Assembly: GCA_027063745.1 (NCBI GenBank)
Contig: JAMORG010000008.1
Location: 1-32,065, forward strand
Source of the DNA: Sulfurimonas sp.
Lineage (GTDB): Bacteria; Campylobacterota; Campylobacteria; Campylobacterales; Sulfurimonadaceae
DNA length: 32,065 nucleotides
Reading direction: 5' to 3'
Positions 1 to 32,065 of this stretch are shown piece after piece (positions within the stretch are counted from its first letter, which is position 1; each line of letters opens with the position of its first letter). Position numbers and translations under genes: made by a program. Under the pieces are notes generated by a model that did not search any database, had not been told where the DNA came from, and saw only the letters and a program-made list of their open reading frames with translations.

Positions 1-15
1 GATTAAAGGTTTGAT

Positions 16-126
16 ATGGGTGATATGAATGGTGTTGATATTGCAGAGGTTATTTTACTTGTAATTGTTTTTGCAGTAGGCGTTGGCGGATTTATCTGGG
101 CAGCAACAAAAGATGATGATAAATAA
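16..126 (+). CDS. Small single-TM protein, 36 aa (MGDMNGVDIAEVILLVIVFAVGVGGFIWAATKDDDK); function unknown, possibly an accessory subunit of a complex encoded upstream of the window
   Basis: ATG at 16, TAA at 124-126; hydrophobic core with charged C-terminus. Too short for the ORF track. Confidence 0.45.
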   Translation: MGDMNGVDIAEVILLVIVFAVGVGGFIWAATKDDDK

Positions 127-168
127 AATATATAAAAAGTCATTAAAATAAAGTAGTTAAAAAGAAGT

Positions 169-6610: not shown

Positions 6611-7216
6611 ATGGAGGAAAACAAAATCACTCTGAGTGAAGATGAAAAAGATGTACTCCAGGAGCTGATGAACATAGCCTATGGCAGTGCTACAGCGGTT
6701 GTTGCAGATATGCTTGATGCATTTGCATCACTGAGCATTCCAAATATTCAAGTTCTTACAATGCATGAGCTTTTTGAAACTTTTGACAAGCTCAAAAACT
6801 CCTCATACTTTTTTGCAACACAGGCATTCAGTGGTGAGTTTAACGGTGAGAGTGCTTTTTTTATCAACGAAGAGAGTGCACAAAATCTGGCAACACACCT
6901 TGAAATTGAGAGTAAAGAGGATCTCGATGATGCAATTTTAGAGCTAACAAATGTTCTAACATCCTCACTAACAACACAGCTTGCTGCTGAGATGGGAAGC
7001 GAAGTGATATTTTCACTTCCTAGTATCTTTAAAGTACCCCTTCAAGAGATAGAAAATGTAGAGACTTTTCAGCTCTACTCTCAAGTCATTGTTATAGATA
7101 CTGATCTTAATTTCCAAGACCAAAAGATACACGGTAAAATATTTATACTCACAAAAGATGAATCGATCCAATGGCTCAAAACGAAACTCAATATAATCTT
7201 AGAACAGCTGATCTAG
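6611..7216 (+). CDS. CheC/CheX-family chemotaxis phosphatase
   Basis: Two ExxN motifs (ELMNIAYGSA and ELTNVLTSSL); directly downstream of a CheY-like gene. Confidence 0.8.
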   Translation: MEENKITLSEDEKDVLQELMNIAYGSATAVVADMLDAFASLSIPNIQVLTMHELFETFDKLKNSSYFFATQAFSGEFNGESAFFINEESAQNLATHLEIESKEDLDDAILELTNVLTSSLTTQLAAEMGSEVIFSLPSIFKVPLQEIENVETFQLYSQVIVIDTDLNFQDQKIHGKIFILTKDESIQWLKTKLNIILEQLI

Positions 7217-8352
7217 ATAACGGTATCATCATTGTAGATGATACCCTTAGCATATATCACTTCAACAAATGGCTCGAGCTTCATACAAAAATAGATGAAG
7301 AGAGTGTGCTTACCAAAAAGCTTGATGAAATTTTTCCAAACATAAAGACAAAAACGCTGATACGAAAGATAAAAACGGCCCTTCGCATGAACACACCGAC
7401 CTTTTATACCGCAGCAACTTCACACTATCTTATACCCATTAAGATAAATCAGTTTAAAAATTCTATCTTTGAGTATATGCAACAAGATGTCAGTATCATA
7501 CCTTATGACAAAGAGAAAAAACTTGTTGCCCTTATCATCAAAGACCAAACAAACATGGCATCTGCAAATGCTCTTTTAAATTCTCATATAGAAGAGATCA
7601 AAAAACTAAACCAAGCCCTTATAGAAGAGCAAAAACTACGAGAAAAACAGCACCAGCAGCTCTTAACCTCTTCTCGTAGTGCTGCAATGGGTGATATGAT
7701 CAGTATGATAGCCCATCAATGGAGACAGCCTCTCTCGCTGATTACAACTATGATGGCAAATATGAAGGTAAAAAAAGAACTTGGAACTCTTGATGATGCT
7801 ACTTTGCAAAACTCCTTTAAAAAGATAGAAGAGACTATTTACTATCTCTCAGATACCATCAATGATTTTAGAGACTATTTTAAACCAATCAAAGTAAAAT
7901 CCAATATCAATCTTTATGAGCTTTTTTCTAAATCAATCTTTTTCCTTAAAGATGAAATGTCACAATACAATATAAACTACAAAATCAATATTGATAAAAA
8001 TATTGAAATTTATACATATAAAAATGAACTTTTACAATCTATCATCAACATCATCAAAAACTCTATTGACGCCTTTAAAGAGACAACACTAACAAACAAA
8101 AATATAACTGTCTCACTTGAACAAAAAACCGATAAAATTATACTATTTATAGAAGATAATGCCGGTGGTATAGATAAAGAGCATCTAGAGAAGATCTTTG
8201 AGCCTTACTTCTCAACAAAGAGTAAAAATGGAACAGGACTTGGGCTTTATATCTGCAAAACCATCATAGAGAAGCATTTAAAAGGTACTATTGACATATA
8301 CTCAGATACAAATGGTACAAAAGTAGCAATTACTCTGCCTACTTTGTTGTAA
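7171..8352 (+). CDS. Sensor histidine kinase, PAS-like N-terminus (start may be downstream of the annotated ATG)
   Basis: MIAHQWRQPLSLITTMMAN H-box; NSIDAF N-box; DNAGGI; GTGLGLYICKTIIEKHLKG. Confidence 0.92.
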   Translation: MAQNETQYNLRTADLDNGIIIVDDTLSIYHFNKWLELHTKIDEESVLTKKLDEIFPNIKTKTLIRKIKTALRMNTPTFYTAATSHYLIPIKINQFKNSIFEYMQQDVSIIPYDKEKKLVALIIKDQTNMASANALLNSHIEEIKKLNQALIEEQKLREKQHQQLLTSSRSAAMGDMISMIAHQWRQPLSLITTMMANMKVKKELGTLDDATLQNSFKKIEETIYYLSDTINDFRDYFKPIKVKSNINLYELFSKSIFFLKDEMSQYNINYKINIDKNIEIYTYKNELLQSIINIIKNSIDAFKETTLTNKNITVSLEQKTDKIILFIEDNAGGIDKEHLEKIFEPYFSTKSKNGTGLGLYICKTIIEKHLKGTIDIYSDTNGTKVAITLPTLL

Positions 8353-8378
8353 AATAGTGACAAAAAAGGAGAATTATT

Positions 8379-8804
8379 ATGAAAATTGTATGTCCCCACT
8401 GTTTAGCAGTAAACAATGTACCAAAAAAAGATTTTTATAAAAAAGCTAACTGTGGTAAATGTAAAAATTCACTACTAGATACAAAACCTATGGAGTTAAA
8501 TGACTCTACTTTTGATACTGTTGTTGCAAACAACGAGATACCTGTTATCGTTGACTTCTGGGCACCTTGGTGTGGTCCATGTCAGATGATGGCACCAAAC
8601 TTTGAACGTGCTGCACAGGAATTTCCACTCAAAGCACGTTTTGCTAAGGTAAACACTGAAGAAGCACCAAATGTGAGTGCTCGTTTTGGTATCCGCTCTA
8701 TCCCTACTATCATCGTCTTTAAGGATGGTCGTGAAGTAGATCGCGTCAGCGGTGCCCTTGATGCTAACTCACTTGCATCACTGGCTGCGAAATGGGCTAA
8801 CTAG
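8379..8804 (+). CDS. trxC: Thioredoxin 2 (zinc-finger type)
   Basis: N-terminal CPHC...CGKC zinc motif; [13 protein letters not shown]. Confidence 0.93.
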
Positions 8805-9118
8805 TTCTCTTTGATGTAAGAACAGCAGTAATCAGTCGGTGTTTTGATCTTTAGATCAAAAGAGCTGTTTGCCGGAACTTCAAAAGTCTCAGGAGTAGAA
8901 AGCGTTTTCCACTCTTCTCCTGGGAGTTTGATGTCAAGCTCACCGCTCATCATCTCCATAATCTCTTTATCTGCCGTGTTAAAAGTATATTCACCCGGAA
9001 GCATGATACCAAGTGATTTTATCTCACCGTTTGCAAACTCTATCGTTCTGCTTGTGACTTTTCCGTCGTAGTAGATGTTTGCCTCTTTTACTACTGTCAC
9101 ATTTTCAAATTTTGCCAT
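8801..9118 (-). CDS. ppnP: Pyrimidine/purine nucleoside phosphorylase (PpnP/YaiE, DUF1255)
   Basis: [48 protein letters not shown]; likely start is the internal MAKF at 9118 rather than 9142. Confidence 0.88.
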
Positions 9119-9169
9119 TATAAGCCTTCTGATTTTTTTCATGAAATGATACCAAAATATACAAAAAAT

Positions 9170-9646
9170 TCACCCTTTAAGCCTTACACGTTGAGAATGT
9201 GTAATAGCAACTGCCATGGCATCGGTAATATCAAAAGGTTTTATCTCCTGCTTTATTCCCAAAAGCCGACGAACCATAAAAGCAACCTGTTCTTTTTGTG
9301 CTTTTGCTTTTCCTGTAAGTGCTTTTTTCACCTGTAAGGCAGTATACTCGTGGAACTGTCCAAACTCCTGCAGGAGTTTGAGCATTATTGCTCCTCTAAA
9401 CTGAGCCAGTTTGATGGTTGTAGCAGGATTGTGTGCATAAAAGATATCTTCCATTGCTACTTCGTCTATTGTGTGTTTAGAAAAGAGCATCTCAATACCT
9501 TCTACCATCTGAGGTATCTGAAACTGAAGATTTTCGGCTTTCATTTTAATAAGTCCGGCCTCAATAAGTGATATTTTTCCATTTTGCAGTCGAATAAGTG
9601 CATATCCCATATTACGTGTTCCGGGATCTATTCCAAGTATAGTCAT
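9170..9646 (-). CDS. ruvC: Holliday junction endonuclease RuvC
   Basis: [52 protein letters not shown]. Confidence 0.97.
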
Positions 9647-9664
9647 AAAGATATTATAGCAAAG

Positions 9665-9773
9665 ATATTCACATATGGGAATTATTCACTATTCACATTT
9701 TTTTAACCCAAAATTATGGATTTGTAGAGTACTATTCACATATAATTTAAAAAATAGGTTTTTATGTGAATAT
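9665..9773. promoter_or_regulatory. oriC1-like DnaA-box cluster upstream of dnaA
   Basis: ATATTCACA 9665-9673; TTATTCACT 9682-9690; CTATTCACA 9689-9697; CTATTCACA 9732-9740; reverse ATATTCACA 9765-9773 overlapping the dnaA start. Confidence 0.8.
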
Positions 9774-11076
9774 CGGTCAAGAAGTTTTAAACACCCTCAA
9801 AGATGAAATAACAGAGCTTGAATACAACAGATATATCAGGCACTTAACATATGATGCAAAAAAATCAACTGCTACGCAGGCACTTTTTTACGCACCCAAT
9901 GCTTTAGTAGTGAATTGGATCAAAAACAAGTACACTGACAAGATAGCTCATATCTTTGAAGTAAAGACCGGCTCAAAGGTTTCTGTGCAGATCACGCTCA
10001 AAAATGCTGTTGAAAAGAGAAAAAGTAAAAAAACAGCTCCGGAAGTTAAACAGACAAGCTCACTACTCAATCCTTCACACTCATTTGAGAACTTTATGGT
10101 CGGTGGAAGCAACCAGTTTGCCTTTGCAGCAGTTAAAAGTGCAAGTGAAAACCCCGGAAAAGTCTATAATCCTCTCTTTATCTACGGAGGCGTTGGGCTT
10201 GGAAAGACCCACCTTATGCAAGCAGCCGGTAATGTTTTGCAAAACGAGGGAAAAGTGGTTATCTACACAACGGTTGAGCAGTTTTTAAATGACTTCATTC
10301 GTCATGTTCGTAATAAAACAATGGAACGTTTTCAAGAGAAGTACCGCAAGTGTGATGTACTGCTTATTGATGACATTCAGTTTCTCTCCAACAAAGAGGG
10401 AATCCAAGAGGAATTTTTTCACACTTTTGAAGCCCTAAAGGGTGCCGGAAAACAGATCATTCTTACAGCAGACAAACATCCTAAAAAAATCGGTGGCCTG
10501 GAAGCTCGTCTGCAAAGCCGCTTTGAGTGGGGACTTGTAGCTGATATTCAACCACCGGAACTAGAGACAAAGATAGCCATTATCAAGAAAAAGTGTGAAA
10601 TAAACAAAGTAAAACTCTCTGATGACATTATCAACTACATAGCAACGGTGATTGATTCCAATGTGCGTGAGATAGAGGGTATTTTATCAAAACTCCATGC
10701 CTATTCACAACTGATGCATGTTGATATTGACCTTGAATTTACAAAAAATGTTCTAAAAGATCAGATGCATGAGAACCGTGAAAACCTTACAATGGATAAA
10801 ATCACTGAGATTGTTGCCAAAGATCTCAACATAAAACCAAGTGAAATACGTTCAAAAGGCAGAAGTAAAAACATTGTCTATGCTCGTCGTATCAGTATCT
10901 ACATCTGCCGTGAGCTCACGCAACACACTATGCCACAACTTGCACAGTATTTTGGTATGAAAGACCACACAGCTATTAGTCATACTATCAAAAAAATCAA
11001 TGATCTTATTAAAGATGATGAAGATTTTAGAGTAAAAATAGAAGAATTAACCAACAAAATAACAGCATCAAGCTGA
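9766..11076 (+). CDS. dnaA: Chromosomal replication initiator protein DnaA (GTG start)
   Basis: 436 aa; NPLFIYGGVGLGKTHLMQA Walker A; DVLLIDDIQFL; C-terminal GMKDHTAISHTIKKI signature. Confidence 0.98.
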   Translation: MNIGQEVLNTLKDEITELEYNRYIRHLTYDAKKSTATQALFYAPNALVVNWIKNKYTDKIAHIFEVKTGSKVSVQITLKNAVEKRKSKKTAPEVKQTSSLLNPSHSFENFMVGGSNQFAFAAVKSASENPGKVYNPLFIYGGVGLGKTHLMQAAGNVLQNEGKVVIYTTVEQFLNDFIRHVRNKTMERFQEKYRKCDVLLIDDIQFLSNKEGIQEEFFHTFEALKGAGKQIILTADKHPKKIGGLEARLQSRFEWGLVADIQPPELETKIAIIKKKCEINKVKLSDDIINYIATVIDSNVREIEGILSKLHAYSQLMHVDIDLEFTKNVLKDQMHENRENLTMDKITEIVAKDLNIKPSEIRSKGRSKNIVYARRISIYICRELTQHTMPQLAQYFGMKDHTAISHTIKKINDLIKDDEDFRVKIEELTNKITASS

Positions 11077-30258: not shown

Positions 30259-30358
30259 ATAAAATCATATCTAAAATTTTGATTAGCTTGAGTAATAATT
30301 TGGATTTAAAGCATAGCTTGATATAATCATGAACTTTATCAAACTATATGGAGCCACA

Positions 30359-31381
30359 ATGAATAGAAAACAGATATATAATCCGGATTCAACGGAAAAC
30401 GTCAATGATAGGAAGGTTTTTGGTGGTGATCCAACAGGGATATTTGAATTAAATAACATTAAATATCAGTGGGCATATAATCTTTGGGAGATGATGTTAA
30501 ATAACACATGGTTCCCAAAAGAGGTTGATATGACACGTGATGTCAATGACTATAAAAACCTTACAGATGCAGAAAAGACAGCCTATGACAAGGCACTTTC
30601 ACAGCTTATCTTTATGGATTCACTCCAGACAAACAACCTTATTGATAATGTCAACCCTTATGTGACTGCACCGGAGATCAACCTTATCTTGGTTCGTCAG
30701 TCATTTGAAGAGGCACTTCACTCTCAAAGTTATGCGGTTATGGTTGACAGTATCTCTACAAACTCTGAAGAGATTTATGATCTGTGGCGTCGCGATATGA
30801 TGCTTAAACATAAAAATGACTCTATTGCAGCGGTTTATCAAGAGCTTGCGGCAAACCCTACTGATGCAAACTTTTTAAAAGCATGTTTTGCAAACCAGAT
30901 TCTTGAAGGTATCTACTTCTACAGTGGTTTTACTTACATCTACACACTGGCACGTGCTGGAAAGATGCTGGGAAGTGCACAGATGATCCGCTTTATTCAG
31001 CGTGATGAGGTGACACACCTTGTACTTTTCCAAAACCTTATCAATACACTCAGAAAAGAGAGACCGGATCTTTTCACTGAGCAGCTTAAAAAAGATGTCT
31101 ATGATATGTTTGAAAAAGCAGTTGAGCTTGAGAGCGGCTGGGGTAAATATATCACTCAAGGGCAGATCTTAGGGCTTACAGATGAGATTGTCGAGCAGTA
31201 TATTAAGTACCTTGCAGATGACAGACTTACATCAGTTGGTCTTGAGAAGCTTTACAATGTGAAAAATCCTATCAAATGGGTAGATGACTTTGCAAAATTC
31301 AACGACCAAAAAACAAACTTCTTTGAAGGAAATGTAACAAACTACTCTAAAGGAAGTCTGACATTTGATGATGATTTCTAG
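30359..31381 (+). CDS. nrdB: Ribonucleoside-diphosphate reductase class I, beta subunit
   Basis: Metal ligand/radical motif [28 protein letters not shown]; likely start MNRKQIYN at 30359. Confidence 0.96.
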
Positions 31382-31435: not shown

Positions 31436-32065
31436 ATGAAAAAAATTCTCTCCCTTGATTTAGGTACAACTTCCATAGGTTATTCAGTTATAAACGAAAA
31501 AGAGATACAAAGATATTCACTTCTTGATTATGGAGTGAGTATGTTTGATAAGCCAACAGATAAAGATGGAAACTCCAAAAAACTTCTTCACTCACAAGCA
31601 ATTTCTGCAAAAAAACTTCATCAGTTACGAAAAGAACGAAAAAAGAATTTAGCCAAACTCTTTGAAAAGTATAATTTAGCTTCTGCTACTAAACTTTTAG
31701 AACAAGAGAAGAAAAATATCTATATTCACAAGTGGCAGTTGCGTGCCAAGAGAGTCTTTGAAGAGAAACTCTCTATTGAGGAGATTTTTACCATTCTTTA
31801 TCATATTGCAAAACACAGAGGCTATAAGTCTCTTGATAGTGGAGATTTATTAGAAGAGTTGTGTGTTGAGCTTGGAATTGCACTCGAACAAAAAAAAGAG
31901 AAAAAAGATGATGAAAAAGGAAAAATCAAACAGGCTCTTAGCACCATAGAATCCCTTCGCAAAGAGTATCCAAAAAAGACAGTTGCACAAATTATTTACG
32001 AAGTAGAGTTGCAAAAAGAGCAACCTGTTTTTAGAAATCACGATAACTATAATTATATGATTCGT
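31436..32065 (+). CDS. cas9: Cas9 (type II CRISPR effector), N-terminal 210 codons, truncated by the window edge
   Basis: My translation, absent from the ORF track: MKKILSLDLGTTSIGYSVINEKEI... (RuvC-I), KKLHQLRKERKKNLAKLFEKY (bridge helix), LYHIAKHRGYKSLDSGD, QPVFRNHDNYNYMIR (II-C-like RN..Y...R pattern). Open to the last base. Confidence 0.88.
   Translation, partial: MKKILSLDLGTTSIGYSVINEKEIQRYSLLDYGVSMFDKPTDKDGNSKKLLHSQAISAKKLHQLRKERKKNLAKLFEKYNLASATKLLEQEKKNIYIHKWQLRAKRVFEEKLSIEEIFTILYHIAKHRGYKSLDSGDLLEELCVELGIALEQKKEKKDDEKGKIKQALSTIESLRKEYPKKTVAQIIYEVELQKEQPVFRNHDNYNYMIR

What the first reader, a model, noticed from the sequence alone, without database searches (positions are those of the whole stretch)
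31436..32065. Unannotated divergent type II-C-like Cas9 begins at the right edge
Seen directly: a 210-codon open frame that the ORF track omits because no stop falls inside the window. Established: Cas9 starts with a RuvC-I motif (here ILSLDLGTTSIGYSVI), a basic bridge helix, and a HIAK(R/H)RGY block, as in the Campylobacter jejuni Cas9 (ILHIAKRRGYDD). Inference: it is a compact type II-C-like effector and the entrance to a CRISPR-Cas locus continuing right of the window. It does not look like the type II-B Wolinella/Francisella Cas9.
Basis: partly seen in the sequence, partly recalled or inferred. Interest (0 to 1): 0.85.

Follow-up and report, generated by a model that had tools for sequence, protein, structure and literature searches.

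The report
Cas9 stub of a collapsed CRISPR locus
The right edge of this window holds the first fifth of an ordinary bacterial Cas9 gene, but the only DNA that continues from it in this assembly jumps straight into a single CRISPR repeat and then normal chromosome, so the immune locus appears to have been deleted in at least part of the population.

Summary
Window 31436-32065 is a real open frame of 210 codons and encodes the N-terminus of Cas9 (NCBIfam cas_Csn1, 6.8e-31). It is 76% identical to a complete 1121-aa Cas9 in a closed genome of the same genus, G019. There the gene heads a type II-C locus, cas9-cas1-cas2-tracrRNA-array, placed between nrdB and a nitrilase gene.

The window is one whole assembly contig, and contig C44 begins with its last 127 bases. 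C44 does not continue cas9. Starting exactly one base past the overlap it has one 36-bp CRISPR repeat (33/36 identical to G019's), which closes the Cas9 frame at codon 219. A relic antitoxin gene, the nitrilase and pcm follow. No other piece of cas9, no cas1 and no second repeat was found in the bin. Relatives without CRISPR have nrdB and the nitrilase 5-12 bp apart, so both contigs flank one site.

Best reading: a known kind of type II-C Cas9 whose locus was deleted, from codon 210 to the last repeat, in part or all of the population. Assembly chimerism is the main rival.

The parts
31436..32065 (+). 5' 210 codons of a type II-C cas9 (RuvC-I, bridge helix, first part of REC); no HNH, RuvC-II or RuvC-III
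   Evidence: frame; TIGR01865 6.8e-31; alignment, 76% identical to G019 Cas9; one search places the other nuclease motifs at residues 517, 603 and 744 of G019 Cas9, beyond the fragment
31448..31483 (+). RuvC-I motif LSLDLGTTSIGY with the presumed catalytic Asp
31616..31663 (+). arginine/lysine-rich bridge helix (LHQLRKERKKNLAKLF)
   Evidence: by alignment with G019 residues 61-76
31802..31831 (+). conserved HIAKHRGYKS block
   Evidence: invariant A-K-H-R-G-Y columns
31939..32065 (+). 127-base overlap with the start of contig C44 (L003 1-127), taken as a k=127 assembly-graph branch point; the next base on C44 is base 1 of a CRISPR repeat
30329..31381 (+). nrdB (ribonucleotide reductase small chain), left flank of the locus site
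   Evidence: 91-94% identical nrdB lies next to the nitrilase in relatives without CRISPR, and next to cas9 in G019
1..127 (+). 127-base overlap with the end of contig C7 (19562-19688); shows that contig ends here are graph branch points

Best explanation
The feature is the 5' fifth of a genuine type II-C cas9, heading what was a cas9-cas1-cas2-tracrRNA-array locus inserted in the operon gap between nrdB and a nitrilase gene of a Sulfurimonas-like bacterium. In at least part of the sampled population the locus has collapsed. A deletion removed everything from cas9 codon 211 up to the first base of the last CRISPR repeat, leaving a 219-codon Cas9 stub whose last nine codons and stop are read from the repeat itself. 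Intact Cas9 of this family would work as a standard tracrRNA:crRNA-guided nuclease; the stub lacks HNH, RuvC-II/III and most of REC and is not expected to cut. Shown: Cas9 identity, the intact relative at the same site, the repeat at the join, empty sites in other relatives. Inferred: that the join is real DNA, that an intact allele coexists (which would explain the graph branch), and the route of deletion. Exact ending on a repeat boundary suggests either recombination between cas9 and a last spacer copied from it, or Cas1-Cas2 joining a broken cas9 end to the repeat, rather than a random break.
For: Cas9 identity. Complete counterpart in closed genome G019, same flanks: nrdB, cas9 1121 aa, cas1, cas2, antirepeat/tracrRNA, 3 repeats, nitrilase, pcm, thyX. 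The window's Cas9 is sister to G019's (98/96 support). The contig overlap is exactly 127 bp, and the repeat starts at the next base. The repeat is 33/36 identical to G019's; the best elsewhere in 41 kb is 22/36. The frame ends at codon 219. No other cas9, cas1 or repeat in the bin. Empty sites with nrdB and nitrilase 5-12 bp apart show that C8 and C44 flank one site. In the eight relatives checked the base after the homologous codon 210 is C or A, never the G of the repeat, as expected if an intact allele causes the branch. Precedents of decay: Sulfurospirillum arcachonense keeps only cas9 codons 1-87 and about 194-236; G010 has a Cas9-Cas1 deletion fusion and one repeat.
Against: No reads or coverage were available, so the join rests on two contigs of an 82%-complete bin. 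The missing contig (intact cas9 remainder) may simply be unbinned. The search for cas1 in the bin used one protein and an empty answer is weak. The fragment carries no frameshift or stop, so the loss must be recent or present in only some cells.
Confidence: 0.7

Rival explanations
1. The locus is intact in every cell; the C8-C44 join is an assembly or library chimera, and the rest of cas9, cas1, cas2 and the array are missing only because their contig was not binned.
For: The bin is 82% complete with 131 contigs; arrays and strain mixtures break graphs; the closest relative has an intact locus at the site; the fragment has no inactivating mutation.
Against: A 128-mer of cas9 plus repeat should exist in reads to give this contig. 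C44 runs unbroken across the repeat into the flank, so the cas9 end was the accepted predecessor of the repeat. The join falls exactly on the repeat's first base, at the syntenic place.
Confidence: 0.22
2. A variant of the best explanation: all cells carry the deletion, and the contig break at codon 210 has some other cause such as a sequencing-error branch.
For: No second cas9 piece, cas1 or repeat was found in the bin.
Against: A branch exactly at the join is most simply explained by a second, non-deleted successor. A branch caused upstream would put the break 127 bases before the repeat only by coincidence.
Confidence: 0.2
3. The truncated 219-aa Cas9 piece is a domesticated, functional small protein (for example an RNA-binding regulator).
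For: Open, unmutated frame; synonymous-dominated divergence from G019.
Against: The same divergence is expected if it was a working full-length gene until recently. The last nine residues are translated repeat. No relative seen here has a conserved stub of this length; others have decayed differently.
Confidence: 0.03
4. It is not Cas9 but another RuvC-fold protein (IscB, IsrB, RuvC).
For: Only a weak Pfam RuvC hit for the fragment itself.
Against: Curated Cas9 model over cut-off; a full-length relative has HNH_4 and RuvC-III, and relatives sit with cas1, cas2, tracrRNA and arrays.
Confidence: 0.01

Closest known systems
Type II-C CRISPR-Cas locus of genome G019, same genus, closed genome (L047 2753-7705)
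   Same: Same chromosomal site (nrdB | nitrilase), 76% identical Cas9 N-terminus, repeat 33/36 identical, sister in the tree (98/96)
   Different: G019 is complete (1121-aa Cas9, cas1, cas2, tracrRNA, 3 repeats); here only 210 codons and one repeat remain on the contigs at hand
Type II-C Cas9 with solved structures closest by profile (8jtj, 9ar4, 8uza, 8hnt, 6jdq)
   Same: Profile of the family aligns over RuvC, bridge, REC, HNH and RuvC-III (1e-92 to 1e-121)
   Different: The C-terminal third is not covered by the best matching stretch; the PAM of this family is unknown
Cas9s of about 980 aa in the same genus (taken as C. jejuni-like), as in G073
   Same: Also next to cas1 and cas2 and, in G073, also next to nrdB
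   Different: Separate clade (100/100), about 33-35% identity over the fragment, unrelated repeat
Decayed cas9 of Sulfurospirillum arcachonense DSM 9755 (L015 9995-10413)
   Same: Same Cas9 family reduced to N-terminal scraps in a named strain's genome
   Different: Internal deletion and later decay, no repeat found

Membership tests
Cas9 (type II effector) | RuvC-I motif and arginine-rich bridge helix at the N-terminus | tested here: met
Cas9 (type II effector) | HNH domain and RuvC-II/III in the same protein | tested here: not met
   Absent from the 210-219 codon frame available here; met in the full-length relative G019 (HNH_4 1.8e-12, RuvC_III 4.4e-5). So the gene belongs to the family by descent, but the stub is not a working Cas9
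Type II-C CRISPR-Cas locus | cas1 and cas2 next to cas9, without csn2 (II-A) or cas4 (II-B) | tested here: inconclusive
   Met in G019, L007, L010 and others (some have an extra Fic gene); not found in this genome and absent on C44; bin 82% complete
Type II-C CRISPR-Cas locus | Repeat-spacer array of about 36-bp repeats | tested here: not met
   One repeat only, C44:128-163, and no other copy in the bin; arrays of 3-17 repeats in relatives
Type II-C CRISPR-Cas locus | tracrRNA with antirepeat | tested here: not met
   Nothing but the repeat lies between the cas9 stub and mntA on C44; in G019 an antirepeat plus two hairpins lies between cas2 and the array (z -3.46)
Type II-C CRISPR-Cas locus | RNA-guided DNA cleavage and PAM | not testable with these tools
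   32 spacers collected in relatives; 16 of them tried, none matched a phage record

The most novel reading that the evidence does not exclude
The deletion was made by the CRISPR system itself. Either the last spacer was a copy of cas9 and recombined with it (after self-cleavage or not), or Cas1-Cas2 joined a broken cas9 end to the 5' edge of the repeat, so the immune locus excised itself exactly to a repeat boundary.
Probability: 0.15. Interest if true: 0.55.

Novelty: new member of a known kind. Interest (0 to 1): 0.3.

Why it matters
It corrects an edge-of-contig annotation: a CRISPR effector that seems to open a locus is probably a remnant, or one allele of a mixed population. If the join is real it is a base-resolution snapshot of CRISPR-Cas loss in a natural Campylobacterota population. 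The deletion ends exactly on a repeat, which makes the question of how such loci are lost testable with the original reads. The intact relatives also outline a Campylobacterota type II-C Cas9 family that models built for known Cas9s score more weakly than the 980-aa Cas9 of the same genus.

Tried and rejected
Finding the rest of cas9 in the bin by HMM, by cas1 protein and by repeat pattern: nothing beyond C8 and C44. A viral-contig scan for the same Cas9: none. A plasmid search: only distant Cas9s. Sixteen spacers of relatives against phage genomes, to get a PAM: no match. Spacers of relatives matching their own contig: none printed, so there is no direct example of a cas9-derived spacer. The first tree was wrong because minus-strand loci were not turned; it was redone. 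An AlphaFold job for G019 Cas9 had not finished when I stopped polling and is not used. Literature searches for Sulfurimonas Cas9 and for Fic genes in type II-C operons gave nothing relevant.

Full report
What is there. The window's last 630 bases (31436-32065, +) form an open frame of 210 codons with no stop before the edge. It is the N-terminus of Cas9: NCBIfam cas_Csn1 6.8e-31, over cut-off, PADLOC Cas9 3.2e-19, and Cas9 chains of the PDB down to 1.6e-13. The RuvC-I motif, basic bridge helix and HIAKHRGYKS block are present and align with complete relatives.

Where the window ends. The window is the whole of contig C8 of a 1.6-Mb, 131-contig, 82%-complete genome. Its last 127 bases are identical to the first 127 bases of contig C44, and its first 127 bases to the last 127 of contig C7. 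Exact overlaps of one length at both ends are what a k=127 de Bruijn-graph assembler leaves at branch points (inference from how such assemblers work). The edge is therefore probably a place where the assembler saw more than one continuation.

What C44 shows. The base after the overlap is the first base of GTTTTAATACCCCTACAAACTCGTGTGTGATATAAT. This matches the CRISPR repeat of the closest relative at 33 of 36 positions; the best match elsewhere in the 41 kb of C8 and C44 is 22 of 36. The Cas9 frame runs into the repeat, reads VLIPLQTRV and stops, 219 codons in all. Next come an MntA-type nucleotidyltransferase gene, a nitrilase gene, a pcm-like and a thyX-like gene and others; there is no cas gene (pcm and thyX named by reading, not searched). 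No other cas9 piece, no cas1 match and no other repeat was found in the bin; with 82% completeness this is suggestive only.

The intact counterpart. Genome G019 (same genus, one contig) has a Cas9 76% identical over the fragment, at the same site: nrdB, cas9 (1121 aa), cas1, cas2, an antirepeat, three repeats, nitrilase, pcm, thyX. Cas1 is of the type II kind (TIGR03639 2.2e-72) and there is no gene for cas4 or csn2, so the locus is II-C. The presumed tracrRNA, on the minus strand between cas2 and the array, folds into an antirepeat hairpin plus two more hairpins, the last followed by a U-run (z -3.46). HNH, RuvC-II and RuvC-III motifs lie at residues 517-752 of G019 Cas9 and have no counterpart in the fragment. 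In a tree of N-termini the window is sister to G019 (98/96), in a family separate from the 980-aa Cas9s of the genus (100/100).

The site. In eight relatives without CRISPR here, the stop codon of nrdB and the nitrilase gene are 5-12 bp apart. So the right edge of C8 and the left part of C44 are the two sides of one site, and the cas9 stub plus repeat (and the mntA relic) is what remains between them. G073 carries a different type II locus with a 993-aa Cas9 and another repeat after nrdB, and its array end lies before the nitrilase on another contig, so the site has been occupied at least twice.

How it most likely arose. A deletion from codon 210 to the start of the last repeat gives exactly this sequence. 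The presence of a branch suggests that cells with an uncut cas9 are also in the sample: in the eight relatives checked the next base is C or A, not the repeat's G. The right breakpoint coincides with a repeat boundary. A random breakpoint would do so rarely (my estimate is under about 1%, taking 3-13 repeats in about 5 kb). Two routes would do it by nature: recombination between cas9 and a last spacer copied from it, or Cas1-Cas2 joining a cas9 end to the repeat edge. Neither is shown. Loss of cas genes and deletions through self-targeting are documented in other systems (review PMC6990116). Selection on the gene until recently is indicated by dN 0.19 against saturated synonymous change.

What else fits. 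A chimeric join cannot be excluded without reads. Against it, C44 runs without a break from cas9 through the repeat into the flank. The identity as Cas9 is not in doubt; the claim of an active locus continuing to the right is not supported by the sequence available.

Verdict. A real Cas9 N-terminus of a known kind (type II-C), very probably a remnant in at least some cells. Interest is modest, higher if reads confirm a deletion ending exactly on the repeat.

Noticed in passing
L052 (G010:C9:90000-106000), minus strand 6928-10602: In-frame deletion fuses Cas9 (residues 1-1013 of the G005 homologue) to Cas1 (residues 70-308) in one 1224-aa frame, and the array is down to a single repeat. Could be a real fusion or a collapsed assembly.
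   Followed up: partly
L006 13500-14285, L007 13359-14141, L012 13371-14153, L011 13383-13745 (shortened): A Fic-domain gene (tested in L006: Pfam Fic, PADLOC candidate PDC-S04; the others by resemblance) sits between cas9 and cas1 in several loci of this Cas9 family. No paper describing this was found.
   Followed up: partly
L005 7004-10393 and about 10749: An Aliarcobacter MAG contig has a full-length Cas9 of this family and an antirepeat-like stretch but no cas1, cas2 or array on 13 kb.
   Followed up: no
L003 (C44) 170-503: MntA antitoxin gene with DSF where related copies have GSF in the nucleotidyltransferase motif, and what looks like its HepT partner cut to 12 codons. G019 has a 22-codon mntA-like relic at the same place.
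   Followed up: partly
L070 (G073:C41) and L074 (G073:C62): A different type II locus with a 993-aa Cas9 occupies the same nrdB-nitrilase gap, followed by what looks like a MazEF-type pair (read by eye, not searched) before the nitrilase: the site may be a recurrent insertion point.
   Followed up: partly
L015 9995-10413: Sulfurospirillum arcachonense DSM 9755 keeps only cas9 codons 1-87 and about 194-236 of this family.
   Followed up: yes
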